DNA of 35,247 bases from the IMG/VR virus record IMGVR_UViG_3300034683_000360, positions 1 through 35,247 of that record; one strand, given 5' to 3'. The stretch comes from a virus. Positions 17,715 to 35,247 of the stretch are shown in pieces. How positions within the stretch are numbered: the first letter of the stretch is position 1; each line of letters starts with the position of its first letter. The position numbers and the translations under genes were made by a program. The notes under the pieces were generated by a model. It was given only the letters and a program-made list of their open reading frames with translations, did not search any database and was not told the DNA's origin.

Positions 17715-17737
17715 TATTTCCCGATGCAAAATGTGAT
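17714..17737 (-). other. attL, with the displaced original 3' end of mnmE
   Basis: On the minus strand these bases read I-T-F-C-I-G-K-stop (ending GGG AAA TAA), the invariant C-terminus of MnmE, but here detached from any mnmE body. The 11-bp core CCGATGCAAAA (17721-17731) is identical to the core at 35121-35131 inside the mnmE 3' end. It marks the left boundary of the integrated element. Confidence 0.85.
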
Positions 17738-17793
17738 TGTATTGCTGTTATCGCCTGATATATAGCGTTTTACGCCATTTTGTATTTTGATGG

Positions 17794-17813
17794 GTGACAA
17801 AACAGTGACAAAA
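17794..17813 (-). repeat. 20-bp repeat copy 1, beside attL
   Basis: On the minus strand it reads TTTTGTCACTGTTTTGTCAC: two TTGTCAC half-sites 11 bp apart. It is 18/20 identical to the copy near attR and lies 63 bp inside attL. An integrase arm-type site is likely. Confidence 0.65.
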
Positions 17814-17861
17814 ACTACAACAAAGATAATGCTTGTTTTGATTGCAATCTCTATTTTTAGC

Positions 17862-17918
17862 CTCATTGTTTGTTATTTCTCCAGTAATTTCACCCAGGTA
17901 GTATATGATCCATTTTAT
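17862..17918 (-). pseudogene. Possible relic of another mnmE 3' end
   Basis: A minus-strand frame contains IKWIIYYLGEITGEITNNE. It aligns without gaps to the host MnmE C-terminal stretch IRECIFHLSDIVGEVTNDM encoded at the right end of the window, with 8 identities in 19 and mostly conservative changes. The frame then runs on into unrelated sequence, and the FCIGK end lies about 130 bp further left at attL. It may be a piece of a different mnmE picked up by the element, or a coincidence. Confidence 0.35.
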
Positions 17919-18026
17919 AATTATTGAGATGGAATAAAACAATGAACTTAAAAATCTGTATATTTGTAAACTCTTACAGCTATTGAAGTTTGTTCTCCAG
18001 GTTAGAGACAGAGGACAACACTTTAG

Positions 18027-18061
18027 AAAAGCCCTTGAAAGAAATATTCAAAGGCTTTTTT
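18027..18061 (+). terminator. Intrinsic terminator near the left end of the element
   Basis: AAAAGCC-c-TTGAA (18027-18039) pairs with TTCAA-a-GGCTTTT (18047-18059), a 12-bp stem with one mismatch and a 7-nt loop, followed by T residues on the plus strand. It would stop rightward transcription entering the element. The rest of 17919-18144 has no gene. Confidence 0.65.
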
Positions 18062-18144
18062 GTTTTTATGTTGGATCCTCATATAAATAAAAATCCTGAT
18101 AGGATCTTTCACCTACCAGGATCATTGCCAGAAAATATGTTGCA

Positions 18145-18471
18145 TTAGAAATCTCCTTTATATTGTTTTCTTATGCCAGTTTCAAAAGACTGGCTCCAGT
18201 CGGTTGGATCTCCATAGGGGTTAGGTGATTTACCTGGTAAATAGTCCTCAATAAAGCTCTTTTTCCATTCCTGGTAAGTCTCTTTCAATGGCTTATTTGT
18301 TCGTGAATCCAGGTAATTGAAATGGAACTCTCTCTCATACTCCCATAGTCTGGCAGCAAAAGGCTTTTCTTTGTCCCCTATGTAGGGATTCTCAGCCTCT
18401 CCTTTGTACCAGCGATAATTAGAGCAATCTTCTGTTATTCCTGAGAGGTAAGTTTGATCTGTCCTTTTCAT
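18145..18471 (-). CDS. Unknown element protein, 108 residues
   Basis: Last gene of the leftward unit. The protein is polar and rich in aromatic and charged residues (NYRWYKGEAENPYIGDKEKP, WEYEREFHFNYLD), with no signal peptide, membrane segment or motif I recognise. Its start overlaps the stop of the preceding gene by four bases (ATGA at 18468-18471), so it is translationally coupled to the 81-residue protein. Position beside attL, behind cargo genes and a candidate ncRNA, is where mobile elements often keep accessory or host-interaction genes. No function can be assigned. Confidence 0.75.
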   Translation of the reverse strand: MKRTDQTYLSGITEDCSNYRWYKGEAENPYIGDKEKPFAARLWEYEREFHFNYLDSRTNKPLKETYQEWKKSFIEDYLPGKSPNPYGDPTDWSQSFETGIRKQYKGDF

Positions 18472-18713
18472 ACTGTATTAAAACGTTTTTCCATTATATC
18501 ATCAGCAACGGTAAAGCCATACATCTCACCAAGCATATTTATAGCATTACTCATACTCTTAGTAGATCCTGTTATACGATCTCCAAAAAATTCACTCAAT
18601 AGAGGATTATCACCAAGATCCTTTAAACCATCATTTACTCTTTTAAGATCTTGCATCAATACCAGCATACTCTCCCTAACTTGCTGGTAGTTATCTGGTT
18701 CATTATATTTCAT
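18468..18713 (-). CDS. Unknown element protein, 81 residues
   Basis: A small helical protein (MKYNEPDNYQQVRESMLVLM..., then a GDRITGSTKSMSNAINMLGE segment). I use the ATG at 18713 rather than a TTG two codons upstream. It overlaps the preceding gene by 11 bases and the following one by four, making a three-gene coupled cassette. No transmembrane segment or known motif is visible. The alternating hydrophobic pattern would suit a small adaptor or a helical bundle, but function is unknown. Confidence 0.72.
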   Translation of the reverse strand: MKYNEPDNYQQVRESMLVLMQDLKRVNDGLKDLGDNPLLSEFFGDRITGSTKSMSNAINMLGEMYGFTVADDIMEKRFNTV

Positions 18714-18969
18714 ACTCAATAGTATAAGAATAGAACAAAGTTAATAACATAACTCTGGAAAATTTGTTTCCACTTATTTCCTCTGAATCAATCATATCAT
18801 TAATAAAGCCTTTTCCAAAAGTGCATATAGCCATTCCTTTTGAGATTAAATCTTTTTTAGGATCCATAAGTTTAATAAATTGTGCTCTTCCAATCTCAGC
18901 CATACCCGTGAGAATGTTTGTTAGCTCAAAAAGTTCAAGATTAATCATTTTTTGTAATTTTGATAACAT
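18703..18969 (-). CDS. Unknown element protein, 88 residues
   Basis: First of three coupled small genes. The protein is mostly helical and hydrophobic in parts (MINLELFELTNILTGMAEIG; FSRVMLLTLFYSY near the C-terminus), so weak membrane association is possible, but no clear transmembrane helix is seen. The ATG at 18969 lies only 8 bases after the T-tract of the candidate ncRNA terminator, so expression may depend on read-through, an attenuation-like arrangement. No family is recognised. Confidence 0.72.
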   Translation of the reverse strand: MLSKLQKMINLELFELTNILTGMAEIGRAQFIKLMDPKKDLISKGMAICTFGKGFINDMIDSEEISGNKFSRVMLLTLFYSYTIEYEI

Positions 18970-18977
18970 TATAGCAC

Positions 18978-19156
18978 AAAAAAAACGGTGTGCCTTTCCC
19001 GTTTGCTATCACCTATTACAAAGGCTGTGGTGGCATTAACCAATCACACAGGGGTACACACCGCTAATATCTTAGCATGCAGATCTGACCAATGAATACA
19101 AAAGATCCACCGTTATGAAAGCAGTGGATATATCCACCTTTGTAATATGTGATAGC
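18978..19156 (-). ncRNA. Candidate structured ncRNA of about 175 nt
   Basis: On the minus strand the 5' arm GCTATCACATATTACAAAGG (19156-19137) pairs with the 3' arm at 19024-19005 at 19 of 20 positions. Inside the 112-nt loop are three local hairpins: GTGGA-TATA-TCCAC (19137-19124, overlapping the closing stem by one base), GCTAA-GATA-TTAGC (19076-19063), and CTGTG...TGG/CCA...CACAG (19051-19025). Directly after the closing stem comes AAACGG-10 nt-CCGTTT followed by eight T (18985-18978), an intrinsic terminator. A -7 box at 19161-19168 would start transcription at the first bases of the closing stem. This is the layout of an independent ncRNA, or of an attenuated leader for the gene at 18969. 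I do not recognise the family. Confidence 0.65.
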
Positions 19157-19160
19157 GTGA

Positions 19161-19168
19161 CAAAAATA
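19161..19168 (-). promoter_or_regulatory. Promoter -7 box of the candidate ncRNA
   Basis: TATTTTTG on the minus strand fits TAnnTTTG, and start of transcription about 7 bases on would be near 19154. The 13 bases GTGACAAAAATAG (19157-19169, plus strand) are identical to the integrase promoter at 34960-34972. No exact -33 TTTG is seen. Confidence 0.5.
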
Positions 19169-19222
19169 GAAAGTTTCTTTCAATTGAAAAAGTATTCATG
19201 GCTTTTTTGTTGATTATCATGC

Positions 19223-19244
19223 AAAAATGTGTTTGTCAAACACA
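19223..19244 (-). terminator. Intrinsic terminator of the lipoprotein gene
   Basis: On the minus strand TGTGTTTG-a-CAAACACA (19244-19228) forms an 8-bp stem followed by TTTTT (19227-19223). It lies just past the stop codon of the lipoprotein gene. Confidence 0.75.
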
Positions 19245-19247
19245 CTT

Positions 19248-20273: not shown

Positions 20274-20296
20274 AGGTAAGACTATTTTGTTTGAAT

Positions 20297-20878
20297 TTAC
20301 CAGTCCTGTTTATTTGATTCTAAACCTTTCTTGAAAGCTTCAATATAAGAGCTGAAATATGATTCCAGTTGGTTCTTTGCATATTCGGCTTTTAGATCTC
20401 CTTTTTTGTTATAGATACAATTGATAATCTCGGATCCAAAACCTCCATTTGAGGATCCTAATAAAATCATTTTTATTGGTTTAGATCCACTTTCATAATC
20501 GCTGAGGCTAAAAGCAGGTGCATCAATTCTTATCTTACCATCCTTAAACCTAATCACTATTGTATAATTCATATCATAGGCAACAGCAACCATTCCCATA
20601 GCTTTTTTTATAACAGCCTTTGTCTCAATACCATTGATTGTTATTACATCTGGAGCAGATTCACTTAATACATCCTTTGGTGATTTGTAAATGGTAGTCA
20701 GATAGGTTTTTGCTTTGTTGAATAACTCAGATTGTGAACCAGTAGCATCTATAACAATGAAATTTTTACTTTGATCTTTGGAGTCAACAAACCCGTTTGA
20801 AGTTAAAGAGAAACTCTGAGCAAAAATATTTCCTGTTGTCAAAGCTACCAGGCAAAGCACTAATAGAATTTTTTTCAT
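20297..20878 (-). CDS. Secreted DUF4468-like protein
   Basis: A 193-residue protein starting at the ATG at 20878 (MKKILLVLCLVALTTGNIFA). It has a signal peptide with likely cleavage after IFA or IFAQ, so it is exported to the periplasm. The mature part (ATGSQSELFNKAKTYLTTIY, TKAVIKKAMGMVAVAYDMNYTI, then a conserved-looking YDM-Y-I-I-FKDGKIRI segment) resembles the DUF4468 family, a TBP-like fold common in Bacteroidetes with no known function. Within the element it is cargo between the tail genes and the lipoprotein. It has a long structured leader upstream and its own terminator, so it appears to be separately expressed. Confidence 0.75.
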   Translation of the reverse strand: MKKILLVLCLVALTTGNIFAQSFSLTSNGFVDSKDQSKNFIVIDATGSQSELFNKAKTYLTTIYKSPKDVLSESAPDVITINGIETKAVIKKAMGMVAVAYDMNYTIVIRFKDGKIRIDAPAFSLSDYESGSKPIKMILLGSSNGGFGSEIINCIYNKKGDLKAEYAKNQLESYFSSYIEAFKKGLESNKQDW

Positions 20879-20929
20879 AACATTATATTTGAAGTTAGTA
20901 AACATCTATTTGCTGCCATTGCCCATAAA

Positions 20930-21071
20930 AAAGGTACGTGGGCAATTACCCATATTGGTAAAGAGGCATCGCCAAACGCCCACACCCCCATATAAGTAAC
21001 GCCCACGTATATCTGGGCGTTTTACTTATTGTTTGTTGGAGTGTAATAAAATTGGCGATTTTCTTTACCCA
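20930..21071 (-). ncRNA. Large folded leader or second candidate ncRNA
   Basis: Outer arms 21071-21051 and 20975-20955 pair through TTGG, GTAAAGA/TCTTTAC and ATCGCCAA/TTGGCGAT with small bulges. Inside are ACACTCC/GGGGTGT and a hairpin AAGTAA(aa)CGCCCA/TGGGCGTTACTT (21027-20994). A weak hairpin GGTA/TACC followed by TTTTTT (around 20934-20925) could end a transcript. It lies between the tail operon and the DUF4468-like gene and may be the 5' leader of the latter, a terminator complex, or a separate RNA. Confidence 0.45.
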
Positions 21072-21107
21072 AAAACAATAGCAAACGCTATATTTCATGA
21101 TTTTGAG

Positions 21108-21115
21108 CAAATATA
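21108..21115 (-). promoter_or_regulatory. Promoter -7 box upstream of the folded leader
   Basis: On the minus strand TATATTTG matches TAnnTTTG exactly. It is 33 bases downstream of the last tail-operon stop codon and would start transcription near 21101, ahead of the large folded structure and the secreted protein gene. No clear -33 TTTG. Confidence 0.5.
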
Positions 21116-21140
21116 CATCATTTTTCATTATGATAACACT

Positions 21141-21650
21141 TTAGTAATAAAGTTTATTGTGTTTTCTAACAATGATACCATCACCAATGCACTGAGCCTG
21201 GGCATTACCATAAAGATTGATAAATACCTGAGCATCGCTTCCAGCCGTTGCAACAACCAGATTTGTATCATCAAAAGCATCTATAGTAACTATAGCATTA
21301 TTTTCGACATTGACAGCTCCCTCACTATTGTGCCTTGCAAATATTCTGGCTACAGTGTAACCAGAATACCTGAGCATCGCTTTACAGTGCCCGTTTAGTA
21401 CCACATCAGGACTATCTACTAAATCCGAAATCTCATCATCAATAAAAATCCCAAACTCCTCACATTTACCCTTAAAATTCTCTCTCATAAATTCAAGGGT
21501 TGGAAAATCTTCACTGATACAAAAATCTATACCTTTTACATACAGTTGTACCAGGTTATCCATATTCAGCCCTGGTTTTAGCTTCCATTGCCACATACGG
21601 CATAAACCCTTTGTTATACCGTCTTTTTTGAGTTGTTGTATTGTTTTCAT
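21141..21650 (-). CDS. Phage tail-associated protein downstream of the tape measure
   Basis: A 169-residue protein whose ATG overlaps the last base of the tape measure stop codon, so the two are coupled. The N-terminal half (GLCRMWQWKLKPGLNMDNLV, CISEDFPTLEFMRENFKGKC) is helical. The C-terminal half (VARIFARHNSEGAVNVENNA, VVATAGSDAQVFINLYGNAQ) looks like a short beta-helix or solenoid, a shape common in tail tips and fibres. I have the impression that similar proteins follow tape measure genes in other Bacteroidales prophages. A tail-tip or baseplate role is inference. Confidence 0.75.
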   Translation of the reverse strand: MKTIQQLKKDGITKGLCRMWQWKLKPGLNMDNLVQLYVKGIDFCISEDFPTLEFMRENFKGKCEEFGIFIDDEISDLVDSPDVVLNGHCKAMLRYSGYTVARIFARHNSEGAVNVENNAIVTIDAFDDTNLVVATAGSDAQVFINLYGNAQAQCIGDGIIVRKHNKLYY

Positions 21651-24600
21651 TATGATATTCCTTTTGATAGCAAAGAGCTACCGTTGTTTTTAATTTCGTT
21701 GAGAGCAGATTTTATCTCTTTTAATTCAGCAGCACTGGCTCCAGTATTAGCAGCTGTTTGTTGATGGTAAATAAGAGACTGTCTGAGTACCGAAATACCA
21801 TCAGCCTGGTTTATCACCACGGCTCCCAGTTTGCCCGCTACAATTCCTCCAGTTTCTTCACTTAGAGATTTTACAGCTCCAGTAGTCGGATCCTCAGTAG
21901 TAGCCGTATCTGTATCCTTAATCCAATCACCTATACCAGATAAAGCTTTATTGAATATCTCTCCACCAGCATTAACCATAGCTTCAAATTTAGCCCTCTC
22001 CTCATCGGTAAGCTCATTATCTTTCATAGCCGAACCTAAGTATACCACAGCATCATTGATAGCCTTAGCCAGGAATTGACGTTTCAAAGCCTCAACAACA
22101 GCTTTTTTCAGTACCTCCTTAGTTTTTTCGCCCAGTGCATCAGCAGCATTTTCACCTTTCACGTAAGCATCCACAAGAGCATCAGCAAATTCATCTATGG
22201 CACTCTGAACATCGGTACCAGCCAAAGTTTCCATCATTGCCTGATCCAGATCCTCAATTTGCTGGTTAATGGTTTCTATTTTTTCCTCCCAGTCGCTGAT
22301 TTTACCCTTGTCAGTTTTCTTTTTAGCTTCCTCCGCCTGTATCTGCTGTTTAATATCCTCCTGCTGCTTTCTAAGGTTTTCCTTTTGCTGTTCGTATAGC
22401 CCAAACATATCATCCCCCTCTTTAGCTTTTGAAAGAGCAGCCTGGAGTTCCTGGATCTGTTTGGTGAGCTGAGCATATCTGACAAAATCCCAGCTCCGAG
22501 CTGCTACACGTGCCTGTTCTTTTAATGCAGCGATCTGATCGTTGATGAGACTAACATTCTTCTCAAAGGCACTCTTTTGGGCATCATTAAAAACCCAGTA
22601 AGTATTATTATAAGCTCTCTCCAGACGGCTATAAGATTGCTCCAGGGCATCAATTTCTTTCTGGAGGTTCTGGATCTTCTTTTCATATTTAGCATCATGT
22701 ACTTTGGCAAAAATGCTGATAACAGAAGTAATGGAACTAACCAATCCAGTAACACCGCCAATAATATCCCCAGACATTATTTTGCCGACACTGGCAGCTG
22801 CATTGCCTAATTCTCCCATGAGATCCATTGCAGTACCCAGACCAGAAGCCAGATCCTCATTGCCCAGGGCATCAAACATAGAAGCCAGCGAATTGCCACA
22901 CTCAGTAGCTATGCCTGTAACCTCCTGGATTGATTTTGTTACTCCCTTAGCTGCTGTTTTTACCTCTTTCTGTGCCTCATCAACATCTTTTTGTGATCCT
23001 TTGCCTGAAAGAGCATCCGTTTTGGCTTTTGCCAGCTTCTTTTTAGCCTCCACATAATCATCAAAGAACTTTCCAAGAGCCTTGAATGGGTTCTTTTCTA
23101 TGATCTTATCCTTTGCCTCATTCAAGCTATCAATCACAGCCTTGTAATCTACTGGATTCAGTTTCAGATCAGATTTGCTGAGCTTGTTTTGAATATCATC
23201 AACCAGCTTAGAGATCTCCCCAGCTGTTAGTGAATCCATATCTTGGAAAAGCTTTTGCCAGCTATCAGACTGTTTGAGGAACGTACCATTTAGAGCGGAT
23301 AATTCCTGAGCCTCTGCTTTATTGATTTGTTTCAGGCGTTCATCATCACCCATTTTCTGAGCCTGGGATCTGAGCAAAGAATATTCATCCTGGATGGATT
23401 TTCTTTGTTCCTCATAAGTACGATACTCTTTGAGGAGTTTATCATTTAGCTCTTTGTCAGTTTCATCTTTCATTTGAGACAGAACTAAACGACCTGATGC
23501 CTTTGCATCATCTCCCACTAAGCCAGATGTACCATTCTTTAGTTTATCCTGGTAATCTGCAATCACTTTCAGTTTTTCTGCAAGGGTATTGGCTCTATTT
23601 ATTGACTGAGTAAAGCTTTCTTTAAAAGTATCAAGAGCTGATTTTTTGCCAGTGATCTCATCCAGCTGGGTATTCAAATTGATAAGGTAATTAGATTCTC
23701 CCTCTGAAATGGTTCCATCGTTCTTTTTGGATGTGAGATTTTGTATTTCTTTCTCTATATAATCCTTGTAAGATGTACCGCTTTTAAGCAAGTCTTTAAA
23801 CCGATTATTAGCCACATCCTCACCCATATTCTTTACCCAGCGGAAATAAAGCTCATACTGGCTTTTCTTGTACTCAATTTCACCATCAAATAGTTTGTTC
23901 TGAGCTTTGCTATAGCTGGCATCTTCATTTGTCCTACGGGCGTTAAATTCGCTTTTCTCTTTAGAGGATAATTCACCTTTCCCAGCATCTCTCCTGGCTT
24001 TCTCCAGTTCTTTCTCCTCCTTATTGATCTGAGCAATGTTTTGTTTATGCTGGAGCTCCAGGAGTGCCTTTCTCTTAGCATACCCCTCATCCATGATCTC
24101 GATCCTGGACTGTTCCGCTTTCAGTTCAGCCTGGATCTGCTTTTCTGCCAGCTGCTGTGCTTTGTTAGCAGCTGTGTCTGCACTCTTGGCTGTTGGTGTA
24201 CTTTTACCAGTAAGAACACTTAATTTTGTTTCTGCTGCCTTTAAGTCTTTAGTTCTATTCTCTATCTCCTCAGCAATATTATCTTTCAGAACTTTTCCAG
24301 ATCTTAAATCACTAATCTCTTTTTTGATACTGTTAATTTGTGATCTGGTTTCAGATATTTGTTCTGAATATGTTTTTGCTGATTTAGTTGATTCGTTAAG
24401 ACTAAGTGAAGTTTCAGAGATCTCTTTATTCAAATCATCAATAGTTGTGTTTACTGATTTAATATCATTTTGAGTTTTATCCAGAGCTTTCTTTGCATTG
24501 TTCTCCTCCTCTACACCAAAAAAGCGTGATATTTTTGCTGTAAAACCATTGCGGTCATAGCCTTGTAAGGTATTAGTTTGTCTTACATCCCAGTATTTAT

Positions 24601-26761
24601 CACTTTGCGATGATTCTGTTTTCTCCAAAGTCCTCTTTTGCTTATAAGCTTGCTCCAGTTCATCCTGTGCAGCTTTCAGTTTTATCTGCTTTTCAAGCTG
24701 GGTTAAGTACTTCTCTATTGCATCTGTATTATCATTAATGATCTTTCCCTCCTTAGTCAGTTCAGCATTGTAGCCTGGTATGATCTGTTTTAACTCATTT
24801 AGGGCTTTATTCCTCTCAAAATAAGCGATATTGCCATCATTAATAATTTTCTTTAGCGTGTCAACTTTAGCAGCTTGCTTGCCAAACTCCTCAGTTACAT
24901 CTTTTGTCGCTTTAGCCAGTCCTGTGATGGTTTCTGTTCCATCCTCCTGCTTTTTAAAGAACATTTCATAAGCACTATAAGCAATCCCTAAAATGCTTAC
25001 TATCCAGCCTATTGGATTAGCTTTCATGGTAGCCCAAAGAGCTTTAAGCCCCAGGGATAATTTGGTGGTAGCAGCATCCAGTAATGATGTGGCTACTGTC
25101 TGAGCCTCTTTTGTTGTTGTGTCGGCTGCACTGGCAACGGTTGACTGCCTGGTAGCAGTTGTTTCCAGGAGCTTCTTTTTTGTGTAGAAGTCAGAGGATG
25201 CTGCCAGTGCTGTTTTGCGTGCAATAGCTTGATTTTCCACAGCTCCCTCCAGCTTTTTCTCAGCTGTGGTTATCCGGGTTACATCTCCAGACTGTTTAGC
25301 CCAATAAAGTTCGTACCTGGCAGATTCAACGGCCTGCATTGATGAGACGGCTGATAATTTTGCCGTTTCCATCTTTACAGCAGCTGCTTTCACATTTTCA
25401 CGCATGGCTGCCATTGTAGCAGCAGTGCTCTGATTCTTTGCCAGTACTTCCTTTTCAAGGGCTACCTGGTAAATAGCACTTTTAGCGGATAGATCTGTTT
25501 TACTTAGTGCCTCTCTCTGTTCTACAGAAAGCACACCCATAGCAACCGCCTCATAGTTTGCGCTGGAGGTGGTTACATTCAAATTTGAAAGATATTCCTG
25601 CTGTTGGGCTGTAAGGAGTTGCTCAATGGTAGCTATTCTCAACTGCTTAGCCAGGTTTGCCTGTTCTTCAACAGTGAGCTGTTTTTGCAAGGATGCTGTG
25701 TGAGCTTCCTGGGCTGCTGTCATTTTTGCAGTTATAGCTGCTGTCTTGCCAGTAGCAGCCTCATCCGCTTTCATGAGGGCTATCTTAGCCTGTCTAACAG
25801 TGTTATCAATCAGAGAAACACCAGTGTATCCCTTAGTCGCTAATGTATTTAAAACAATAGCAGCCCTATAGGATCCATAAGCAATAGCAATAGCTTTGAC
25901 AATTCTAAGAACATCATCCAAGTGCTCAACGACCGTGATAGCCCCAGAAATACCTGATTCAAGTGCTCCCTGATTATCTTCACCAAGTTTATTCAGAGCC
26001 ATATCCCAGGAATCCCCCAGGTTAGAGATCATACCAGTAAGAGATTTACTTTGCCGTTCCATTAGATTGTAGAACTGCCCACCCGAATTAGTCATTTTGT
26101 TAATGACTTTCTCAACCTCAGGGAAACCGATCTTTCCCTCAGATACCATAGCGTTGATCTCCTCAGCGGTTTTGCCGTACATGGCAGCCAGCTCTCTTAC
26201 CAATGGAATACCTCTACCAGTGAACTGCCTTACATCCTGAGCATATAAACGCCCTTGCACCATTGTGGTACCATACAGGTAAACAATATCATTCAGAGGA
26301 ATGGAAAGCCCTGAGGCTATATTTCCAAGCCTTACAAGCGTATCATTTACCTTGTTTGCAGATTCACCATAGGCTAACAGCTGTTTTGCTCCACCTGCAA
26401 CTCCCATAAGGTCAAACGGGGTTCTGGCTGCTGTATTGGTAAGCTGATCCATGAGAGCCTTTGACTTAGCACCGCTGCCCAGCATTGTATCAAATGCAAT
26501 CTGTAGCTGCTGGAATTGCCCACGTGTTTGAACGATACTGTTCACAAGTCCCATCATACCACCGCCAACCAGAGTGCCGATGATATACCTGGCTCCATTT
26601 TGAGCAAATGCAGCTATGGATTGCTCCATCTTTTCAGATTCCTGGACTGCTGTAGTAGAAACGTTCCTGATCCTACGCTCCATAGCATCAGCAGACACTT
26701 TAAAATCATCTATATTGAGGGTTGCCTGAAAAGCCAACCCTCCACCAATATTTTCACTCAT
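21650..26761 (-). CDS. Phage tail tape measure protein, 1703 residues
   Basis: The N-terminal 60-260 residues form a tape measure domain (MGLVNSIVQTRGQFQQLQIA, FDTMLGSGAKSKALMDQL, ARTPFDLMGVAGGAKQLLAY, FTGRGIPLVRELA). A hydrophobic segment near 585-615 (GWIVSILGIAYSAYEMFF) and another glycine-rich one near 1330-1370 would suit membrane insertion at DNA ejection. Between and after them lie long charged coiled coils. Tape measure proteins set the length of a long non-contracted or contractile tail; at roughly 1.5 angstroms per residue this one implies a tail of about 250 nm. It overlaps the preceding small gene by 8 bases. No capsid or terminase genes accompany it. Confidence 0.95.
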   Translation of the reverse strand: MSENIGGGLAFQATLNIDDFKVSADAMERRIRNVSTTAVQESEKMEQSIAAFAQNGARYIIGTLVGGGMMGLVNSIVQTRGQFQQLQIAFDTMLGSGAKSKALMDQLTNTAARTPFDLMGVAGGAKQLLAYGESANKVNDTLVRLGNIASGLSIPLNDIVYLYGTTMVQGRLYAQDVRQFTGRGIPLVRELAAMYGKTAEEINAMVSEGKIGFPEVEKVINKMTNSGGQFYNLMERQSKSLTGMISNLGDSWDMALNKLGEDNQGALESGISGAITVVEHLDDVLRIVKAIAIAYGSYRAAIVLNTLATKGYTGVSLIDNTVRQAKIALMKADEAATGKTAAITAKMTAAQEAHTASLQKQLTVEEQANLAKQLRIATIEQLLTAQQQEYLSNLNVTTSSANYEAVAMGVLSVEQREALSKTDLSAKSAIYQVALEKEVLAKNQSTAATMAAMRENVKAAAVKMETAKLSAVSSMQAVESARYELYWAKQSGDVTRITTAEKKLEGAVENQAIARKTALAASSDFYTKKKLLETTATRQSTVASAADTTTKEAQTVATSLLDAATTKLSLGLKALWATMKANPIGWIVSILGIAYSAYEMFFKKQEDGTETITGLAKATKDVTEEFGKQAAKVDTLKKIINDGNIAYFERNKALNELKQIIPGYNAELTKEGKIINDNTDAIEKYLTQLEKQIKLKAAQDELEQAYKQKRTLEKTESSQSDKYWDVRQTNTLQGYDRNGFTAKISRFFGVEEENNAKKALDKTQNDIKSVNTTIDDLNKEISETSLSLNESTKSAKTYSEQISETRSQINSIKKEISDLRSGKVLKDNIAEEIENRTKDLKAAETKLSVLTGKSTPTAKSADTAANKAQQLAEKQIQAELKAEQSRIEIMDEGYAKRKALLELQHKQNIAQINKEEKELEKARRDAGKGELSSKEKSEFNARRTNEDASYSKAQNKLFDGEIEYKKSQYELYFRWVKNMGEDVANNRFKDLLKSGTSYKDYIEKEIQNLTSKKNDGTISEGESNYLINLNTQLDEITGKKSALDTFKESFTQSINRANTLAEKLKVIADYQDKLKNGTSGLVGDDAKASGRLVLSQMKDETDKELNDKLLKEYRTYEEQRKSIQDEYSLLRSQAQKMGDDERLKQINKAEAQELSALNGTFLKQSDSWQKLFQDMDSLTAGEISKLVDDIQNKLSKSDLKLNPVDYKAVIDSLNEAKDKIIEKNPFKALGKFFDDYVEAKKKLAKAKTDALSGKGSQKDVDEAQKEVKTAAKGVTKSIQEVTGIATECGNSLASMFDALGNEDLASGLGTAMDLMGELGNAAASVGKIMSGDIIGGVTGLVSSITSVISIFAKVHDAKYEKKIQNLQKEIDALEQSYSRLERAYNNTYWVFNDAQKSAFEKNVSLINDQIAALKEQARVAARSWDFVRYAQLTKQIQELQAALSKAKEGDDMFGLYEQQKENLRKQQEDIKQQIQAEEAKKKTDKGKISDWEEKIETINQQIEDLDQAMMETLAGTDVQSAIDEFADALVDAYVKGENAADALGEKTKEVLKKAVVEALKRQFLAKAINDAVVYLGSAMKDNELTDEERAKFEAMVNAGGEIFNKALSGIGDWIKDTDTATTEDPTTGAVKSLSEETGGIVAGKLGAVVINQADGISVLRQSLIYHQQTAANTGASAAELKEIKSALNEIKNNGSSLLSKGIS

Positions 26762-27131: not shown

Positions 27132-27587
27132 TTATACTTTTTCCTCAGCAGTTAAAGCATTTCCCTGTGGATTTTGCAGTATTTTGGGTAAGTAGTCCTC
27201 ATTAGCTACCTTAGTGCGCCATTCTTGATACTCTGGAGAGAGCAACAAAGACAAATATTCTTTCATGTCGTTTTGTATTTCTTCTGTAGGAGTTGCTAAA
27301 TCATAGGAAAGATCAACATATAAGAACTGTTCTAATGGAACTACATGTACATTATCAGCACTAACCTCTAATAGTTGGTCGTAAAGCTTATAATATACTT
27401 TATCCTCCTGAAATATTAGTTTTACATAACGAGGATTCTCTGGATCTGGTCTGTTATCTTCCAGTTTTACCAATGGCTTAAATCCATCAGGAATAGTTAT
27501 CTCTACACCAGCAGCCTCGGCAGCCTCATCATCAACTACTAATGTCTCATAGTAATCATTACAGCCATATCTAATAAATTCTTTCAT
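27132..27587 (-). CDS. Unknown element protein, 151 residues
   Basis: An acidic protein (FIRYGCNDYYETLVVDDEAA, PRYVKLIFQEDKVYYKLYDQ) with mixed alpha/beta character and no signal peptide or known motif. Its start overlaps the stop of the preceding gene by four bases. Location between a fibre-like gene and the tape measure unit suggests a virion or assembly role, perhaps in the tail or baseplate, but there is no direct evidence. It ends before the 129-bp regulatory gap. Confidence 0.72.
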   Translation of the reverse strand: MKEFIRYGCNDYYETLVVDDEAAEAAGVEITIPDGFKPLVKLEDNRPDPENPRYVKLIFQEDKVYYKLYDQLLEVSADNVHVVPLEQFLYVDLSYDLATPTEEIQNDMKEYLSLLLSPEYQEWRTKVANEDYLPKILQNPQGNALTAEEKV

Positions 27588-28045
27588 TTTGCTTGATTTA
27601 AAATTGTTTCTAACTCATTGATTTTGTCCCTGGCAGTCTGTCTCTCGATGTGGAGAGCCTTAAGATCATAAGGGAGAGGATCACCTAACATAAAAGCCTC
27701 ATTACATTTTGTTATTTGATAGTCGGTGCTATCTAAAAACTCTCTTTGTACAGCTATGTCCTTTCTGATCTTTTGAACATCCAGGACTTTCTGGTAGTCA
27801 TAATCAATATGATCTGCTGCATCATAAGGCACCAGGCGTATGATATAGCCATCCTCACATTTTCTCTTATCTTCATCAATAGGAGCCACAGGCTTCCAAA
27901 TGCACTCTAACTGCTCAATTTGTTCATTGATGGAGATCGTTCTGGTTTTAATATACCCTGTTTCTTCATCCCGATAATTCTCAGTTTCTGGCTTCAATAT
28001 CTTAGATATTAGATAGCCATTTTCTATATAACCGTACTCTGTCAT
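27584..28045 (-). CDS. Unknown element protein, 153 residues, coiled-coil C-terminus
   Basis: I use the ATG at 28045 (MTEYGYIENGYLISKILKPE), four bases after the stop of the fibre-like gene; a longer frame from 28096 would overlap that gene by 47 bases. The N-terminal half mentions ETGYIKTRTISINEQIEQLE and an aromatic WKPVAPIDEDKR segment. The C-terminal third is a likely coiled coil (VQKIRKDIAVQREFLDS...ARDKINELETILNQ). The layout resembles small fibre-associated or chaperone proteins next to phage tail fibres. That is inference. Confidence 0.75.
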   Translation of the reverse strand: MTEYGYIENGYLISKILKPETENYRDEETGYIKTRTISINEQIEQLECIWKPVAPIDEDKRKCEDGYIIRLVPYDAADHIDYDYQKVLDVQKIRKDIAVQREFLDSTDYQITKCNEAFMLGDPLPYDLKALHIERQTARDKINELETILNQAK

Positions 28046-28049
28046 AATC

Positions 28050-28769
28050 TTAAAATTTGAATTTACTAACAGTCCATACATCTCTTGTTGAACCATTTAG
28101 ATTGAAACGGGTAAATATGAATACTCCTAACCATCCCTCAGGAATATCATAATAATCATTTTGGGAACTATCATCATGTATATATTGCCCTGATCGGGGA
28201 TAGAACCTGATTGCTCCTTGACCAATCTGCTTTGCCAGAATTGTCCTGCCGATTATCCCATCATTTGGGAGGTAAAGAGTTTTTGTAACCCCGCTATTTG
28301 TTAGCCCCAGAATGAAACTGTCTGATTTAGATAAATACACTGTTCCAGAGCTATCAGATACAGATATACTTTTTAGGATCAATCCAGAGATTAATATATC
28401 CTGGAAAAAACCGCCATAAGCTGGAGCTGTACCGCTGTTGCTTGAATAGCCATATACACCAGCTATAAAGTTTTCATTTTCCCAGTCATATTTATTTACC
28501 GTTCCATATCCAAGCCCCACAATAGCAGCTTTTCTATCAATTCCTGTTGAGGCTGCTACAGCTTGTGTTCCAGCATTATTGCAAAACACTCCAGAGGCAG
28601 ATACTTGTGCTACACCGTTGTTATTTCTTGCCTCCACAACTCCCTCACTGGCGTTTAGCTTTATTTCAGATGATTCTGAACCATCCTCTCCATATAAACC
28701 ACCAGTAGTTGTAGATTCCAGCAGGATTTCAGGCATTGAAGCATCCAATGTTATTTTTGTTTCTGCCAT
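28050..28769 (-). CDS. Probable phage tail fibre or tail-tip protein
   Basis: A 239-residue protein rich in Gly, Ser, Asn and Thr. Its N-terminal half reads like fibre repeats (SSEIKLNASEGVVEARNNNG, VAQVSASGVFCNNAGTQAVA). The C-terminal half (LYLPNDGIIGRTILAKQIGQ, IRFYPRSGQYIHDDS, IPEGWLGVFIFTRFNLNGST) resembles the globular receptor-binding tips seen in fibre proteins and in Bacteroidales prophages. It would sit at the distal tail and bind the cell surface. At 239 residues it is short for a complete fibre. It lies 5 bases before the 153-residue gene and follows a 73-residue gene by 6 bases. Confidence 0.7.
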   Translation of the reverse strand: MAETKITLDASMPEILLESTTTGGLYGEDGSESSEIKLNASEGVVEARNNNGVAQVSASGVFCNNAGTQAVAASTGIDRKAAIVGLGYGTVNKYDWENENFIAGVYGYSSNSGTAPAYGGFFQDILISGLILKSISVSDSSGTVYLSKSDSFILGLTNSGVTKTLYLPNDGIIGRTILAKQIGQGAIRFYPRSGQYIHDDSSQNDYYDIPEGWLGVFIFTRFNLNGSTRDVWTVSKFKF

Positions 28770-28775: not shown

Positions 28776-28997
28776 CTATCCTCTTTTGGTTAGATCTATC
28801 CAATACTCTTTATCACTTTGTAAAACTCTTGACTCTACTTTTGCAAGTCCAGAGTTAACCAGATCTTCTGTAACCTTAAATTCAACCTTTCCATTTTTCC
28901 ATACCCGATAAACAATAGGAAAACCATTGTATTCAGCTTGGAAAATGTTGAAATTAGCACAGCTCTCCATTAAGATTCCTTTGATTTCAATTGCCAT
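28776..28997 (-). CDS. Unknown small element protein, 73 residues
   Basis: A short, probably beta-rich protein (MAIEIKGILMESCANFNIFQ, FPIVYRVWKNGKVEFKVTED) immediately upstream of the fibre-like gene with a 6-base gap. No motif is recognised. In size and location it could be a small tail or fibre accessory protein. No signal peptide or membrane segment. Confidence 0.65.
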   Translation of the reverse strand: MAIEIKGILMESCANFNIFQAEYNGFPIVYRVWKNGKVEFKVTEDLVNSGLAKVESRVLQSDKEYWIDLTKRG

Positions 28998-29541: not shown

Positions 29542-30216
29542 TTACTGAATGTATTTGAGATAATAACCATCAAATTCCACCACACCATCATAGTCAACGT
29601 TTAGGATCCGTGCCCCTTGACCTCTACGTGGAGCAATACCACGAACAGGATCAGGATCACTATAAACCTCTTTGATTGTCTGATCCAATTCCTCCAGGGC
29701 TTTTTTAGCAGCTAAAGCCTTTTCATAAACCTTTTTCCTGTTGTCAGTATCTACATAAATAGATCCAAGATCCTCAGCCTCTTTGATAGCCTCATCGGTT
29801 ATGATAACTTTCCCATCAACCAGATCTAATTTTGAAAAATCAACATGATGTTGATCGTTTTCATTCATGGATCTTTGAGCCCCCTGGATAAGTGCATTAC
29901 ATTCCTGGATCAACTTATTGTTATCGGATTCAACTAACTTCTTTAAAGCCTCAGGAAGTTCCTGGAGTTTTTCTTTATCTCTATTTTGAATTAGAGGAGC
30001 TACAGGGAAATTTTCCTTTATTAGAGACCGAATAAGGTTAAGACTTACCTCAATATTTTGATTTTTGAGGAAATCAAAGATCTTTTGTGAGTAAATTCTG
30101 GCTCTTTCATAGTCTCTTTTATAAGCTTCTACATCTTTCTTATCACGATATACTAAAATTCTTTCTTCCATTTTTCTTAATAATTTGCCCTGTATTGCAT
30201 TTGTCCTATTCCACAT
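29542..30216 (-). CDS. Unknown element protein, 224 residues, helical
   Basis: A strongly charged helical protein with likely coiled coils (KDVEAYKRDYERARIYSQKI; KVYEKALAAKKALEELDQTI) and a C-terminal beta segment (RILNVDYDGVVEFDGYYLKY). The ATG at 30216 is used; MEERILVY at 30171 is an alternative start. No family is recognised. Its length is too small for a portal or major capsid protein, but a scaffold-like or head-interaction role cannot be excluded from sequence alone. It stands alone between a 48-bp gap and a 56-bp gap holding repeats. Confidence 0.72.
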   Translation of the reverse strand: MWNRTNAIQGKLLRKMEERILVYRDKKDVEAYKRDYERARIYSQKIFDFLKNQNIEVSLNLIRSLIKENFPVAPLIQNRDKEKLQELPEALKKLVESDNNKLIQECNALIQGAQRSMNENDQHHVDFSKLDLVDGKVIITDEAIKEAEDLGSIYVDTDNRKKVYEKALAAKKALEELDQTIKEVYSDPDPVRGIAPRRGQGARILNVDYDGVVEFDGYYLKYIQ

Positions 30217-30264: not shown

Positions 30265-30498
30265 TCAAAAATCAGCCGTTTTGTGACCGTTTGATGTTGT
30301 GCCTACTTTGGATTCAGCTGAAACTGAGTATTTCTTTAATAATTCATCAGCATATACATCCTCTGGATCCTGTTGCTCATTTGGCTTTTCTTTCAAGCCT
30401 GATAGTTCAGTTTCAAGCTCTTTGATCTTTGCTTCCTTTTCTGCCACAACGCCCTGAAACTTTTGTTCTAAAGCGTTTAATCTTTCTTCTATATCCAT
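30265..30498 (-). CDS. Small coiled-coil protein, 77 residues
   Basis: The first 45 residues form a heptad-like coiled coil (LNALEQKFQGVVAEKEAKIK, ELETELSGLKEK), followed by an acidic linker and a polar tail. It starts 2 bases after the stop of the 57-residue gene, in one operon with the replication genes. It may be a scaffold-like or regulatory oligomerising protein; function is unknown. Confidence 0.7.
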   Translation of the reverse strand: MDIEERLNALEQKFQGVVAEKEAKIKELETELSGLKEKPNEQQDPEDVYADELLKKYSVSAESKVGTTSNGHKTADF

Positions 30499-30695: not shown

Positions 30696-31379
30696 TTACA
30701 ATGTATCCTTATAGCCACTATCAGAGTTATCGCCAGCCTGTTCAAAACTCATTCTATAGCTTTGGGGGGATTTGTTCCATTCTTTTCTATTCCAGTTTCT
30801 AATAGTCGCTTTCCAATCTTTCATGTGATTTTTACCAGCCATCCAGCCATTAGCCTGGTAATAGTCATAAAAAGTATCAGGATCTACAGATAATGAGTTT
30901 TCTTGAATGAAATCTTTTATCTCTTGAAGAGAGGGTTTAGTGAAACGTTTAGTTTCACGTTTAGTAGAAACTTTAGTTTCTAATTCCTTAGTATTATCAT
31001 TTATATTATCATTTGCATTTACATTAAATACATTATCATTTACATTAGGGGTTGTTTTTTCAACGGTGATAGGGTTGTTTTGGGGTTGAATAGGGGTTGT
31101 TTTGGGGTTGTTTTGTTTCAAAGCGTTTGCATTGCCTTTTGGAGCACCTCCTTTTTTCCCAAATTCAGCACCTCTACAACCATTTTCAAACCGTCTCCAA
31201 TTAGCTTCAAGTTGAGGCTTAATAAGTACCCAGCAGACTTTAGCGATACCAGTTAGAACTGGCTCTGTTCTATTCAAAGCATAATCAGAAATAGCTCTGT
31301 ATATTGCTAATTGATCCTCTGTAGGGCAACTCTCTATTGCTTCCTGGAAACTTCTGTAGAATATAAAAGAGTCTCTCAT
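30696..31379 (-). CDS. DUF6291-type phage replication protein
   Basis: A 227-residue protein. The N-terminal domain (SFIFYRSFQEAIESCPTEDQ, LAIYRAISDYALNRTEP, then KPQLEANWRRFENG) matches DUF6291, found in Bacteroidales phage and mobile-element replication modules. A polar low-complexity linker (about residues 90-140, Asn/Thr/Pro-rich) is followed by a C-terminal DnaD-like segment with DPDTFYDYYQANGWMAGKNH and WKATIRNWNR. It probably acts as replisome organiser together with the helicase loader encoded just upstream, whose stop it overlaps by four bases (31376-31379). The protein should bind the element's origin; no origin is obvious nearby. Confidence 0.82.
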   Translation of the reverse strand: MRDSFIFYRSFQEAIESCPTEDQLAIYRAISDYALNRTEPVLTGIAKVCWVLIKPQLEANWRRFENGCRGAEFGKKGGAPKGNANALKQNNPKTTPIQPQNNPITVEKTTPNVNDNVFNVNANDNINDNTKELETKVSTKRETKRFTKPSLQEIKDFIQENSLSVDPDTFYDYYQANGWMAGKNHMKDWKATIRNWNRKEWNKSPQSYRMSFEQAGDNSDSGYKDTL

Positions 31380-32949: not shown

Positions 32950-32994
32950 AATGGTATAATTAGTTGTAGAGTAAGCTGTTTACATGGTCGCTTT

Positions 32995-33729
32995 TTATTT
33001 ATAATTTTTTGCCAATTCTGGAAATATTTCACAGAGCTTTCCAATCATCTTATAGGTCGGAGTTTCACTATCTGTATCCCTGACTCTGGGAAAATTATTA
33101 TCTTCTAATTTTCTCCCTCCTGGAAGATCAAAAATTTTGTTCCACTCTGAGCATTTGATACTAAATAATAAACAGAATCTTGCAGCTTCAGCAAGTCTAT
33201 TGTTTTTCCAGGTTCCTTTAGTTTCTCCTATTGGTAGCTGTTTATATTTCATGACATGAGTAAGCGTGCTGTAATCCATGCCATCTATGAAATTTGCTTT
33301 TAATTGGTTGTATTGTTCTTTGCTTAGAATAGGATCTTCTTGCTGTAAATTTGGAATTTTAATTTGTTTCTCAATATATTCCTCAACTTTACAAGCTAAA
33401 GAGTACAACTCAAAGAAAAAGGAATAATGAAATGTTTCATCTGATCTTCTTGCGAGTTCTTTAATTTGAACTACTTCACTAAGTAAATATTCCAACCCTA
33501 ATTTATCAGTGATGAGTTTTATACTTTCAGAGATGCGCTGCATTCTTTCAATATAATTATGAGCCTCGTCTGGTTTTATATTAAGATAGTAAATGCTACT
33601 GTAATACGGTTTTGTTCCAAAGGTGCAATCAGGATCATTCAAAAACAGATTAAGATCTATATGATTCAATCTACTTTTTATTTCAATCAGATCCTTTTTT
33701 ATTGCAGATATTGTATTTGAGTAATTCAT
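32995..33729 (-). CDS. Unknown protein paired with the integrase, 244 residues
   Basis: A mostly helical protein (NTISAIKKDLIEIKSRLNHI; NYIERMQRISESIKLI; FELYSLACKVEEYIEKQIKI) with a C-terminal portion that includes FIDGMDYSTLTHVMKYKQLP, IGETKGTWKNNRLAEAARFC and a short tail. Part of this resembles a helix-turn-helix-like DNA-binding segment, but weakly. It follows the integrase by four bases and precedes a strong hairpin, so the two form one transcript. A role in integration control or host interaction is inference. Confidence 0.75.
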   Translation of the reverse strand: MNYSNTISAIKKDLIEIKSRLNHIDLNLFLNDPDCTFGTKPYYSSIYYLNIKPDEAHNYIERMQRISESIKLITDKLGLEYLLSEVVQIKELARRSDETFHYSFFFELYSLACKVEEYIEKQIKIPNLQQEDPILSKEQYNQLKANFIDGMDYSTLTHVMKYKQLPIGETKGTWKNNRLAEAARFCLLFSIKCSEWNKIFDLPGGRKLEDNNFPRVRDTDSETPTYKMIGKLCEIFPELAKNYK

Positions 33730-33733
33730 AAGC

Positions 33734-34939
33734 TTAAAATTTGAATTCTGGAATTTTTTCCACAGCCTCCTGCTTTTTCTTATCTATAACCTTTGCATAT
33801 ATCTGAGTAGTAGAAATTTCTTTATGTCCCAACAACTTTGATACAGTATATATATCAACTTCCTGAGTAATCATCATTACAGCAAATGTATGCCTGCCAC
33901 TATGAAACGTTACATCTTTTGTTATTCCTGCTGCCAGACACCAGCGTTTTAGCTCTAATAAAAGTTGGGCAGAATAGTGGAATCCAGCAAACACACGATC
34001 TTCATTATTCCCTCTTTCCCCTAAAAAGTGATCTGCCTGGGAGTTAATGTCTAAATATTCCTGACCTCCAGTTTTTTTCTGTTTGAATATGATTCGAGTA
34101 TATTTATCAAATTTCTGCACATCTTTCCAGGTCAGTCTTTCTATATCACTTTTTCTAAGACCTGTAAGGCAGCTAAAAAGAAAAGCACGCTTTAAAACTG
34201 GGTATCTGCATTCAGCTTGACCTAATTTCTGAATTTCATCAATAGTTAAATATACTCGCTCTGTTTCATCTTGTTTAAATCCCTCAATTCCTCTTAGTGG
34301 ATTGATCGGGATAATACGATCCTCAAACGCCTGGTTTATACAAGCTCTTAGCTTATTGAAATATGAAACTTTTGAATTTTGAGAAAGCGGTTTTGCCTCA
34401 GCCAAAGTGTTGTTTCTTCTTTTATAAGCGTCTTTAGCTGCATTGTCTAAGTAATCTTTGAAGCCTTTTATCCAATCAGGAGTAATATCTTTGAATGTGG
34501 TTTTTTCATCACAATATCTTTGTAGGTGCTGTAAGCAACTATACCAGTTGCCCCAGTTTCCTCTACTTTCAGGATTACCATGTCTATCATCACAGAGCTT
34601 TCTGTAGTATTGCAGAAAAGGTGTGTTTAACTTGAAATGGTTTGAAAATCCGTATTCATTGTTGTAGATTTCTTGCTGCCTTTTGGCGCAAATAGCCTGG
34701 GCGGTTGCTAAATCTTTTTTGTTTTGTTCTCTTCTTTCTGGAGTAGTGGCTTTTATTAAATAAATTTTCAGAAATTCCCGAACTCTTTTTCCATTTCTGT
34801 AAATATCCAGATAAAGGCTTTTATTACCATTGGAAAGAACTCTTTCTCTAAGTTTAACCGATCCATTTTGATTTTCAGTTTTTTTTGTTTTCATATCGCT
34901 GATTTTTTTGTCTATGGGTGACAGTTTTTTGTCTCTCAT
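33734..34939 (-). CDS. int: Tyrosine recombinase (integrase) of the element
   Basis: A 401-residue phage/ICE-type tyrosine recombinase, started at the ATG at 34939; 34894 is an alternative, and a TTG at 34966 would lie in the promoter. An arm-binding/SAM-like N-terminal region (VKLRERVLSNGNKSLYLDIY) is followed by a core-binding domain and a C-terminal catalytic domain with R (about 262, TGLRKSD), K (about 289, KKTGG), H-x-x-R (HSGRH, about 346-349), H (GHKEI, about 372) and Tyr (QIYAKV, about 381). All catalytic residues are present. It sits beside attR, as usual, and should catalyse recombination at the TTTTGCATCGG core in mnmE. Confidence 0.95.
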   Translation of the reverse strand: MRDKKLSPIDKKISDMKTKKTENQNGSVKLRERVLSNGNKSLYLDIYRNGKRVREFLKIYLIKATTPERREQNKKDLATAQAICAKRQQEIYNNEYGFSNHFKLNTPFLQYYRKLCDDRHGNPESRGNWGNWYSCLQHLQRYCDEKTTFKDITPDWIKGFKDYLDNAAKDAYKRRNNTLAEAKPLSQNSKVSYFNKLRACINQAFEDRIIPINPLRGIEGFKQDETERVYLTIDEIQKLGQAECRYPVLKRAFLFSCLTGLRKSDIERLTWKDVQKFDKYTRIIFKQKKTGGQEYLDINSQADHFLGERGNNEDRVFAGFHYSAQLLLELKRWCLAAGITKDVTFHSGRHTFAVMMITQEVDIYTVSKLLGHKEISTTQIYAKVIDKKKQEAVEKIPEFKF

Positions 34940-34948
34940 TATTGGTGA

Positions 34949-34968
34949 GTGACAATTCAGTGACAAAA
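34949..34968 (-). repeat. 20-bp repeat copy 3, beside attR and the integrase promoter
   Basis: On the minus strand it reads TTTTGTCACTGAATTGTCAC, two TTGTCAC half-sites one helical turn apart, overlapping the integrase promoter box. It is 18/20 identical to the attL-proximal copy and 18/20 to the middle copy. A lone half-site (GGTGACA) lies near 34917-34923. It could let the integrase or its partner both recombine and repress its own gene. Confidence 0.65.
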
Positions 34969-34971
34969 ATA
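34964..34971 (-). promoter_or_regulatory. Integrase promoter -7 box
   Basis: On the minus strand TATTTTTG fits TAnnTTTG, giving a start of transcription near 34957 and a short leader before the ATG at 34939. The surrounding 13 bases (34960-34972) are identical to the ncRNA promoter at 19157-19169. No clear -33 box. The interval 34973-35113 shows no gene. Confidence 0.5.
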
Positions 34972-35113
34972 GGATAAAAATCGGATATGAAAAAGAAATT
35001 GAATGAAAAATAAGAAAGAATAGTAATGTGTGCTAATATGCTGTATTTAAAGCGTTTTATTATCCTATTCTTATCTTATTTTTGGTTCTTGTTTTCATTG
35101 TGAAAATTGGGTT

Positions 35114-35247
35114 TCACTTTCCGATGCAAAAGTGATGAAAGATGTTTTGAAGTACCATGTCGTTGGTTACTTCGCCCACAATGTCGCTTAAATGGAAAAT
35201 ACATTCACGAATATCTTGCGAAAGGAAATCGCCTGAAATACCGGTTG
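35114..35247 (-). CDS. mnmE: MnmE (tRNA modification GTPase), C-terminal end, partial
   Basis: The minus strand encodes SGDFLSQDIRECIFHLSDIV, GEVTNDMVLQNIFHH, then FCIGK-stop, the conserved C-terminal end of MnmE (TrmE), running off the right edge of the window. MnmE with MnmG installs the cmnm5/nm5 group on U34 of certain tRNAs, and the terminal FCIGK with its cysteine is a family hallmark. Only the last 44 codons are in view. The stop (TGA at 35114-35116) and last codons (GGA AAG) differ from the copy left at attL (GGG AAA TAA), so the insertion restored the protein sequence with element-supplied DNA. Confidence 0.93.
   Translation of the reverse strand, partial: TGISGDFLSQDIRECIFHLSDIVGEVTNDMVLQNIFHHFCIGK
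35121..35131. other. attR core in the mnmE 3' end
   Basis: CCGATGCAAAA, identical to 17721-17731, overlaps the Phe-Cys-Ile-Gly codons of mnmE. It lies 182 bp upstream of the chosen integrase start codon. Confidence 0.85.

What the first reader, a model, noticed from the sequence alone, without database searches (positions are those of the whole stretch)
17721..35131. Integrated element encoding a long-tail tape measure but no recognisable head or packaging motor
The att-bounded 17.4-kb unit has integrase, excisionase-like, replication, fibre-like and tape measure genes, all intact and tightly overlapped. The longest frames besides the 1703-residue tape measure are the integrase (401 residues) and a lipoprotein (299). 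A large terminase, portal or typical major capsid protein therefore has no place to be encoded. Known capsid-less satellites usually lack tail genes, and capsid-forming ones borrow tails, so an element that keeps its own tape measure and lacks heads would be the mirror image. A tail-only particle (tailocin-like) or a satellite that retunes a helper's tail are possible. A deleted prophage is the dull alternative.
Basis: partly seen in the sequence, partly recalled or inferred. Interest (0 to 1): 0.8.

Follow-up and report, generated by a model that had tools for sequence, protein, structure and literature searches.

The report
Phage satellite with its own tail ruler
A 17-kb parasite of phages, sitting in a Bacteroides-type chromosome, seems to make only the DNA-recognition part of the packaging machine and the ruler and tip pieces of a phage tail, and to take everything else from a helper phage; this is a new family that does what was only recently shown for a satellite in cholera bacteria.

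Summary
Window 17721-35131 is an intact, mnmE-integrated 17.4-kb element. It has integrase, excisionase-like, replication and 1703-residue tape measure (TMP) genes, and no TerL, portal, capsid, tail tube or Dit. The element therefore has the packaging-recognition gene typical of PICI-like satellites.

It is not a one-off deletion. I found about 15 relatives (viral contigs and three bacterial genomes) with the same core order (HTH-replication-g14-TerS-g08-TMP-g06), mostly 14-18 kb. Tested genes are under purifying selection. Satellite TerS genes form their own group (98/99.8). Satellite TMPs are interleaved with those of 48-58-kb siphophages (one clade rejected, p-AU 2.5e-57); the window TMP is 80-99% identical over most of its length to phage L004. 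Members also carry varying extra virion parts (portal, neck, decoration, Tal/fibre).

Best reading: a new Bacteroidales satellite family that redirects helper packaging and builds chimeric tails, as shown for Vibrio PLEs in 2026. No helper, induction or particles were observed.

The parts
35121..35131 (.). att repeat at the mnmE side (CCGATGCAAAA; last codons of mnmE)
33734..34933 (-). g21 tyrosine integrase (399 aa as searched)
   Evidence: NCBIfam Xer-type recombinase hits; 67-70% identical integrases behind mnmE in L016, L103 and L112
32995..33729 (-). g20, 244 aa, unknown, directly downstream of integrase
   Evidence: no family; homologues in L025 and L002
32492..32794 (-). g19 excisionase/AlpA-like helix-turn-helix protein
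   Evidence: PF12728, TIGR01764
32031..32495 (-). g18, 154 aa, satellite-only conserved protein
   Evidence: 53-96% identical in six relatives; absent from 50,697 phage records
31376..32029 (-). g17 DnaC-like helicase loader
   Evidence: phrog_50 E 1.5e-31
30696..31379 (-). g16 DUF6291 / replication protein
   Evidence: PF19808; DnaD-like phrog_8489 weak
30265..30498 (-). g15 small coiled-coil-like protein
29542..30171 (-). g14, 209 aa, satellite-only protein next to TerS (possible packaging or capsid modulator)
   Evidence: family alignment; model pLDDT 86, no significant fold match; absent from phage records
29018..29485 (-). g13 small terminase subunit (TerS)
   Evidence: 52% identical to the gene directly upstream of TerL in phage Versailles; satellites separate from phages
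28776..28997 (-). g12, 73 aa, unknown
   Evidence: only in the closest relatives
28050..28769 (-). g11, C-terminal domain of the phage Tal/fibre protein as a separate gene
   Evidence: 50% over 239 aa of a 1275-aa Tal; phrog_15074 C-terminus
27584..28096 (-). g10, gene that follows Tal in the phages (possible fibre assembly or tip protein)
   Evidence: 57% and 51% identical to genes behind Tal in L004 and L007; phrog_17180
27132..27587 (-). g09, 151 aa, unknown, behind g10
   Evidence: present in L010 and L025
26754..27002 (-). g08, 82 aa, satellite-only gene directly upstream of TMP (possible tail chaperone by position)
   Evidence: absent from phage records
21650..26761 (-). g07 tape measure protein, 1703 aa
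21141..21650 (-). g06, 169 aa tail-module protein that follows TMP in phages and satellites
   Evidence: 91% identical to phage L004; phrog_10156
20297..20878 (-). g05 DUF4468 protein, probably secreted
   Evidence: PF14730
19248..20147 (-). g04 lipoprotein, cargo-like, conserved in the family
   Evidence: 32-43% identical in L016, L017, L019, L023, L103
18703..18969 (-). g03 small protein, conserved in part of the family
18468..18719 (-). g02 small protein, conserved in the family
18145..18471 (-). g01, shared with the related phages (82% in L013)
   Evidence: phrog_28232
17721..17731 (.). att repeat at the far end; flanking sequence looks like an empty mnmE site

Best explanation
The element is a phage satellite of a new Bacteroidales family. 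It integrates by its tyrosine integrase at the 3' end of mnmE and replicates with its own helicase loader and replication protein after a related siphophage (Versailles-like, 48-58 kb) enters or is induced. Its own small terminase binds the satellite's DNA and steers the helper's large terminase to it; capsid, portal, tail tube, Dit and lysis proteins come from the helper. The satellite's tape measure protein, with g06, perhaps g08 as dedicated chaperone, and the fibre-tip domain g11/g10, replaces the helper's versions, so satellite DNA leaves in particles with chimeric tails of satellite-set length and injection or receptor properties. Shown by sequence: gene content, integration, TerS homology, conserved family, purifying selection, TMP exchange with phages but not TerS. 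Inferred: helper identity, packaging, chimeric tail assembly, and what advantage the tail parts give.
For: g13 is 52% identical to Versailles 20425-20901, which overlaps the start of the TerL gene, and its relatives lie next to terminase or portal genes in other phages. Family of about 15 elements with the same core order and no TerL, MCP, tail tube or Dit, against positive controls. Complete integrated copy behind mnmE in a chromosome, L096. dN/dS 0.16-0.23 for TMP between satellites, 0.15-0.22 TerS, 0.09 g11. TMP N-terminal tree: satellites pair with different phages at 96-100, single clade rejected p-AU 2.5e-57; TerS: satellites on one side at 98/99.8. Window TMP 80-99% identical to phage L004 outside residues ~600-900 and g06 91%, while TerS is 55%. 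Experimental precedent: PLE11 TMP and BhuB in virions, tmp deletion cuts transduction ~99.9% (PMC12987554).
Against: No helper-type capsid gene was found in the three whole genomes that carry a member, so no resident helper is seen. No induction, excision or particle data. The TerS structure model is of low confidence and gave no fold match, so TerS rests on homology and gene position. One member (L103) has a stop inside TMP and the B. neonati copy has lost TMP, so some copies decay or TMP is dispensable.
Confidence: 0.72

Rival explanations
1. Deletion derivative: a once complete Versailles-like prophage lost its head and packaging genes, leaving a remnant.
For: TMP, g06, g01, DnaC and g10/g11 have clear phage homologues, some at 80-99%.
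Against: Same compact gene set in ~15 elements with often only 40-70% identical proteins, in unrelated contigs and chromosomes; satellite-only genes g08, g14, g18 with no homologue in 50,697 phage records; dN/dS about 0.1-0.3; TerS separate from the phages; no full phage with a close relative of this integrase found.
Confidence: 0.07
2. Tail-interference island: TMP and fibre parts are made mainly as decoys that poison the assembly of an incoming phage's tail and protect the host cell; transfer is secondary.
For: TMPs match specific phages and are swapped often; interference with phage tail assembly is a known defence strategy (PMC11364771, abstract).
Against: TerS and integrase are kept under purifying selection and replication genes are conserved, which a pure defence island would not need. 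Chimeric-tail and interference functions are not exclusive.
Confidence: 0.12
3. Tailocin-like, tail-only particle.
For: TMP, fibre domain and g06 are tail-module proteins.
Against: Tail tube, chaperone, Dit and the Tal body are absent in the window, found in control phages; a small terminase would be pointless.
Confidence: 0.02
4. Ordinary TerS-type satellite in which TMP and fibre genes are passengers caught by recombination with helpers, without function in the satellite's own particles.
For: Cargo varies between members (portal, neck, decoration, Tal), TMP is mosaic, B. neonati copy lacks TMP.
Against: TMP is present in nearly all members, mostly behind g08 and before g06, and is under purifying selection within satellites (L017/L096 dN/dS 0.16); keeping 5 kb of a 16-kb genome without function is unlikely.
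Confidence: 0.07

Closest known systems
PLE satellites of Vibrio cholerae (PLE11, PLE1, PLE4)
   Same: Integrating satellite with its own TMP and other tail parts, takes capsid and most of the tail from a helper; TMP differs from the helper's (PMC12987554)
   Different: No relationship of sequence or synteny was tested; different phylum; the related phages here have a siphophage-like tail module (no sheath gene noticed), while ICP1 has a contractile tail; this element carries a recognisable TerS; TMPs here are up to 99% identical to phage TMPs over long stretches, against 20% for PLE11 and ICP1
PICIs (SaPI-type with TerS; Gram-negative PICIs with AlpA)
   Same: Integrase, excisionase/AlpA-like HTH, own replication gene, TerS, size about 14-18 kb, no capsid or TerL
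   Different: Adds TMP and other virion parts; no recognised SaPI cpm/ppi or rpp genes; different replication genes; Bacteroidales host
cf-PICIs
   Same: Satellite that makes part of its virion; some are reported to carry putative tmp genes (PMC12987554 Extended Data Fig. 10)
   Different: cf-PICIs carry capsid, portal and both terminase subunits and borrow tails (PMC10690885 introduction); here capsid and TerL are absent
Bacteroides phage Versailles and related phages (L003, L004, L006, L007)
   Same: Homologous TerS, TMP, g06, Tal C-terminus, g10, DnaC, g01 (not all in each)
   Different: 48-58 kb with full head, packaging and tail tube modules; Versailles has another integrase beside a tRNA gene

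Membership tests
PICI-like satellite (TerS type) | Site-specific integration with own integrase and att sites | tested here: met
PICI-like satellite (TerS type) | No own capsid gene and no large terminase | tested here: met
PICI-like satellite (TerS type) | Own small terminase to redirect helper packaging | tested here: met
   gene present by homology and position only, redirection not tested
PICI-like satellite (TerS type) | AlpA/Stl-type regulator and own replication gene | tested here: met
   HTH_17/excisionase (AlpA only weakly, E 0.02) and DnaC-like loader
PICI-like satellite (TerS type) | Induction by and packaging in a helper phage | not testable with these tools
   needs culture; no resident helper-type capsid gene found in genomes G001, G082, G200
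PICI-like satellite (TerS type) | Recognisable PICI capsid-remodelling or interference genes (cpm, ppi, rpp) | tested here: inconclusive
   no Pfam, PHROGs or NCBIfam hit of that kind, but no dedicated models searched; g14 has no significant fold match
PLE | Own TMP with dedicated tail genes, rest of the tail from helper | tested here: met
   gene content only
PLE | Homology to PLE proteins, Vibrio host, ICP1 helper | not tested
   no PLE sequence was compared; different host phylum
cf-PICI | Own capsid, portal and both terminase subunits | tested here: not met
   portal present only in relative L002
Tailocin | Own tail tube and baseplate proteins | tested here: not met
   tail tube and Dit absent, found in control phages
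Complete or decayed prophage | Head and packaging module, or its remains | tested here: not met
   no head-gene remains in the tightly packed element

The most novel reading that the evidence does not exclude
A Bacteroidales satellite family whose survival strategy is modular replacement of virion interface parts: a fixed own TerS plus a freely exchanged set (nearly always TMP, and by lineage portal, neck, head decoration, Tal or fibre tip), so that each satellite re-specifies tail length, injection and receptor choice of whatever siphophage it parasitises and may move between host strains or species that the helper cannot enter.
Probability: 0.4. Interest if true: 0.85.

Novelty: new variant of a known kind. 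Interest (0 to 1): 0.72.

Why it matters
The 2026 PLE paper (PMC12987554) called PLEs the first satellites known to build chimeric tails and left the benefit open; a second, apparently unrelated family tied to siphophages of gut bacteria would suggest that tail manipulation arose more than once, and gives natural replicates (satellite/phage TMP pairs up to 99% identical over long stretches with a swapped middle segment) to test it. Searches of the held open-access library found no description of a Bacteroidales satellite of this kind, though that library lacks most subscription papers.

Tried and rejected
Megablast of the whole element against phage and plasmid records: no match. AlphaFold model of TerS: pLDDT 62, Foldseek gave nothing usable. 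g14 as capsid, portal or scaffold: good model but no significant match in PDB or BFVD; a missing match is not proof. PDB sequence search with TerS and g14 profiles: nothing meaningful. g14 alignment too divergent for a pattern scan. Integrase relatives in faecal phage records MT836017 and MT837961 looked like possible packaged copies, but MT836017 carries ParA/ParB-type genes (read by eye), not this gene set, and MT837961 is mnmE and neighbours plus integrase only. Shorter TMP in satellites (1400-1795 aa against 1672-1805 in phages): a trend, too few to claim. Tailocin and deletion readings rejected as above.
Full report
WHAT IS THERE. The window is a 35,247-base virus record whose left half is host DNA: a BREX locus (BrxC, PglZ, BrxL) and a HipA-like gene with a small HTH gene. 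The element lies at 17721-35131, all genes on the minus strand, bounded by CCGATGCAAAA. On the coding strand this is TTTTGCATCGG, the last codons of mnmE. Among 30 mnmE loci of Bacteroides-group genomes the motif is nearly constant and 28 have no related integrase behind it (one is the B. neonati copy; another has only a short distant fragment ~1.3 kb on); several read GCATCGGGAAATAA, exactly like the inner junction of the window. So integration at mnmE is well supported.

GENE CONTENT. In order: integrase, g20, excisionase-type HTH, g18, DnaC-like loader, DUF6291 protein, g15, g14, g13, g12, g11, g10, g09, g08, TMP, g06, g05, lipoprotein g04, g03, g02, g01. No PHROG, Pfam or NCBIfam hit to TerL, portal or capsid. 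As a direct test, marker proteins of the related phages (two TerL versions, portal, capsid, scaffold, decoration, connectors, tail tube, chaperone, Dit, Tal, spike) were searched in the window, in the relatives and in three control phages: the controls light up, the window shows only a Tal C-terminus.

THE MISSED GENE. g13 belongs to phrog_15125, of unknown function there, but it is 52% identical to the Versailles gene 20425-20901 that overlaps the start of TerL (20888-22318). Homologues sit next to terminase or portal genes in phages L008, L012-L015, L018, L026, L028 and, more distantly, L029, L030, L099, L100 (for L099 and L100 the neighbour was read by eye). Position and homology make it the small terminase subunit; its structure model was too poor to add to this.

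A FAMILY, NOT A WRECK. Scans of viral contigs and genomes with TMP, TerS, g08 and g18 gave L002, L005, L010, L011, L016, L017, L019, L023, L024, L025, L036/L096, L101, L102, L103 and L104. Most share the order HTH-(g18)-replication-g14-TerS-g08-TMP-g06-(lipoprotein)-g02, in contigs or integrated units of about 14-18 kb; some contigs are fragments. L096 is complete inside a chromosome: mnmE, integrase, core, TMP, g06, lipoprotein, then host genes. L016 and L103 also start behind mnmE; L101 and L104 have more distant integrases and probably other sites. g08, g14 and g18 have no homologue in 50,697 phage records. dN/dS in the pairs tested is 0.09-0.32 for TerS, TMP, g06, g08, g09, g10, g11, g14 and 0.03-0.12 for the integrase. 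In a sample of 393 Bacteroidales genomes the TerS profile found two members and two phage-type hits, so the family is uncommon there.

WHO EXCHANGES WHAT. In a TerS tree the satellites lie on one side of a branch at 98/99.8 (an earlier tree with more long-branch members gave the same split at 84/86). In the TMP N-terminal tree they do not: window and L101 sit with phage L004, L019 with L003, L002 and L005 with L007, L104 with Versailles, each group at 96-100, and holding the satellites together is rejected with p-AU 2.5e-57. Block by block, window TMP against phage L004 TMP is 92, 93, 91, 83, 21, 40, 80, 81, 97, 99, 98, 87 percent: both ends come from an L004-like phage, the middle from another source. 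g06 is 91% and TerS only 55% identical to the same phage contig. The simplest meaning is that TerS stays matched to the satellite's own packaging site, while TMP is kept matched to helpers.

EXTRA VIRION PARTS. Members differ in what else they carry: the window and L010 a fibre C-terminal domain with g10; L002 a full portal and a large Tal part; L005 a nearly full Tal; L023 a neck or tail-completion protein; L104 a homologue of the head-module gene between scaffold and capsid.

HOW IT PROBABLY WORKS. By analogy with TerS-type PICIs (established knowledge) the satellite's TerS would direct the helper TerL to satellite DNA. By analogy with PLEs, its TMP replaces the helper's in the tail. For PLE11 this was shown by mass spectrometry, tail length and a roughly 99.9% loss of transduction without tmp; [quoted passage not shown]). 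Every step for the present element beyond sequence is inference. Weak points: no helper-type capsid gene in three whole genomes with members (the helper may arrive by infection), no particle data, TMP lost in the B. neonati copy and broken by a stop in L103.

VERDICT. Observation right in its main lines, with the small terminase overlooked. The element belongs to a conserved satellite family, works most likely like a TerS-type PICI that also builds chimeric tails like PLEs, and is a new variant of a known kind.

Noticed in passing
window 432-13574: BREX-type anti-phage locus (BrxC, PglZ, BrxL by PADLOC; the 1221-aa gene between them is probably PglX, from knowledge) included in the virus record although it looks like host DNA.
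   Followed up: partly
window 13678-15225: HipA-like kinase gene with a small HTH (HipB-like) gene behind the BREX locus.
   Followed up: no
window 16029-16594: Overlapping short frames that look like a broken IS66-type transposase (GGQPGHQGHTL motif), read by eye.
   Followed up: no
window 17251-17361: Short tandem and dispersed copies of TTGGTGATACTTGGTGATACTT just outside the element, possibly part of an old integration end.
   Followed up: no
L112 1-5897; L111 12608-13768: Integrases 64-67% identical in other faecal 'phage' records: L112 lies behind mnmE, L111 sits with ParA/ParB-type genes, so this integrase type also serves unrelated mobile elements.
   Followed up: partly
L104 1-3500: In one isolate contig (68 kb) the satellite sits directly beside lysis-type genes of another prophage, next to what looks like a tRNA site (read by eye); no Versailles-type capsid gene there.
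   Followed up: partly
L023 6313-7655: Two tandem copies of the satellite-only g14 gene; the window's g14 has a good structure model but no known fold match.
   Followed up: partly
L025 4677-12356: Bacteroides neonati MS4 carries the closest relative (TerS 99%) but without TMP and everything behind g09, a shortened copy still at mnmE.
   Followed up: yes
window TMP residues ~600-900 (about 24050-24960, minus): TMP middle segment comes in two dissimilar versions across phages and satellites; the shorter one is in most satellites (window, L002, L005, L016, L017, L023, L096) and phages L003 and L008.
   Followed up: partly
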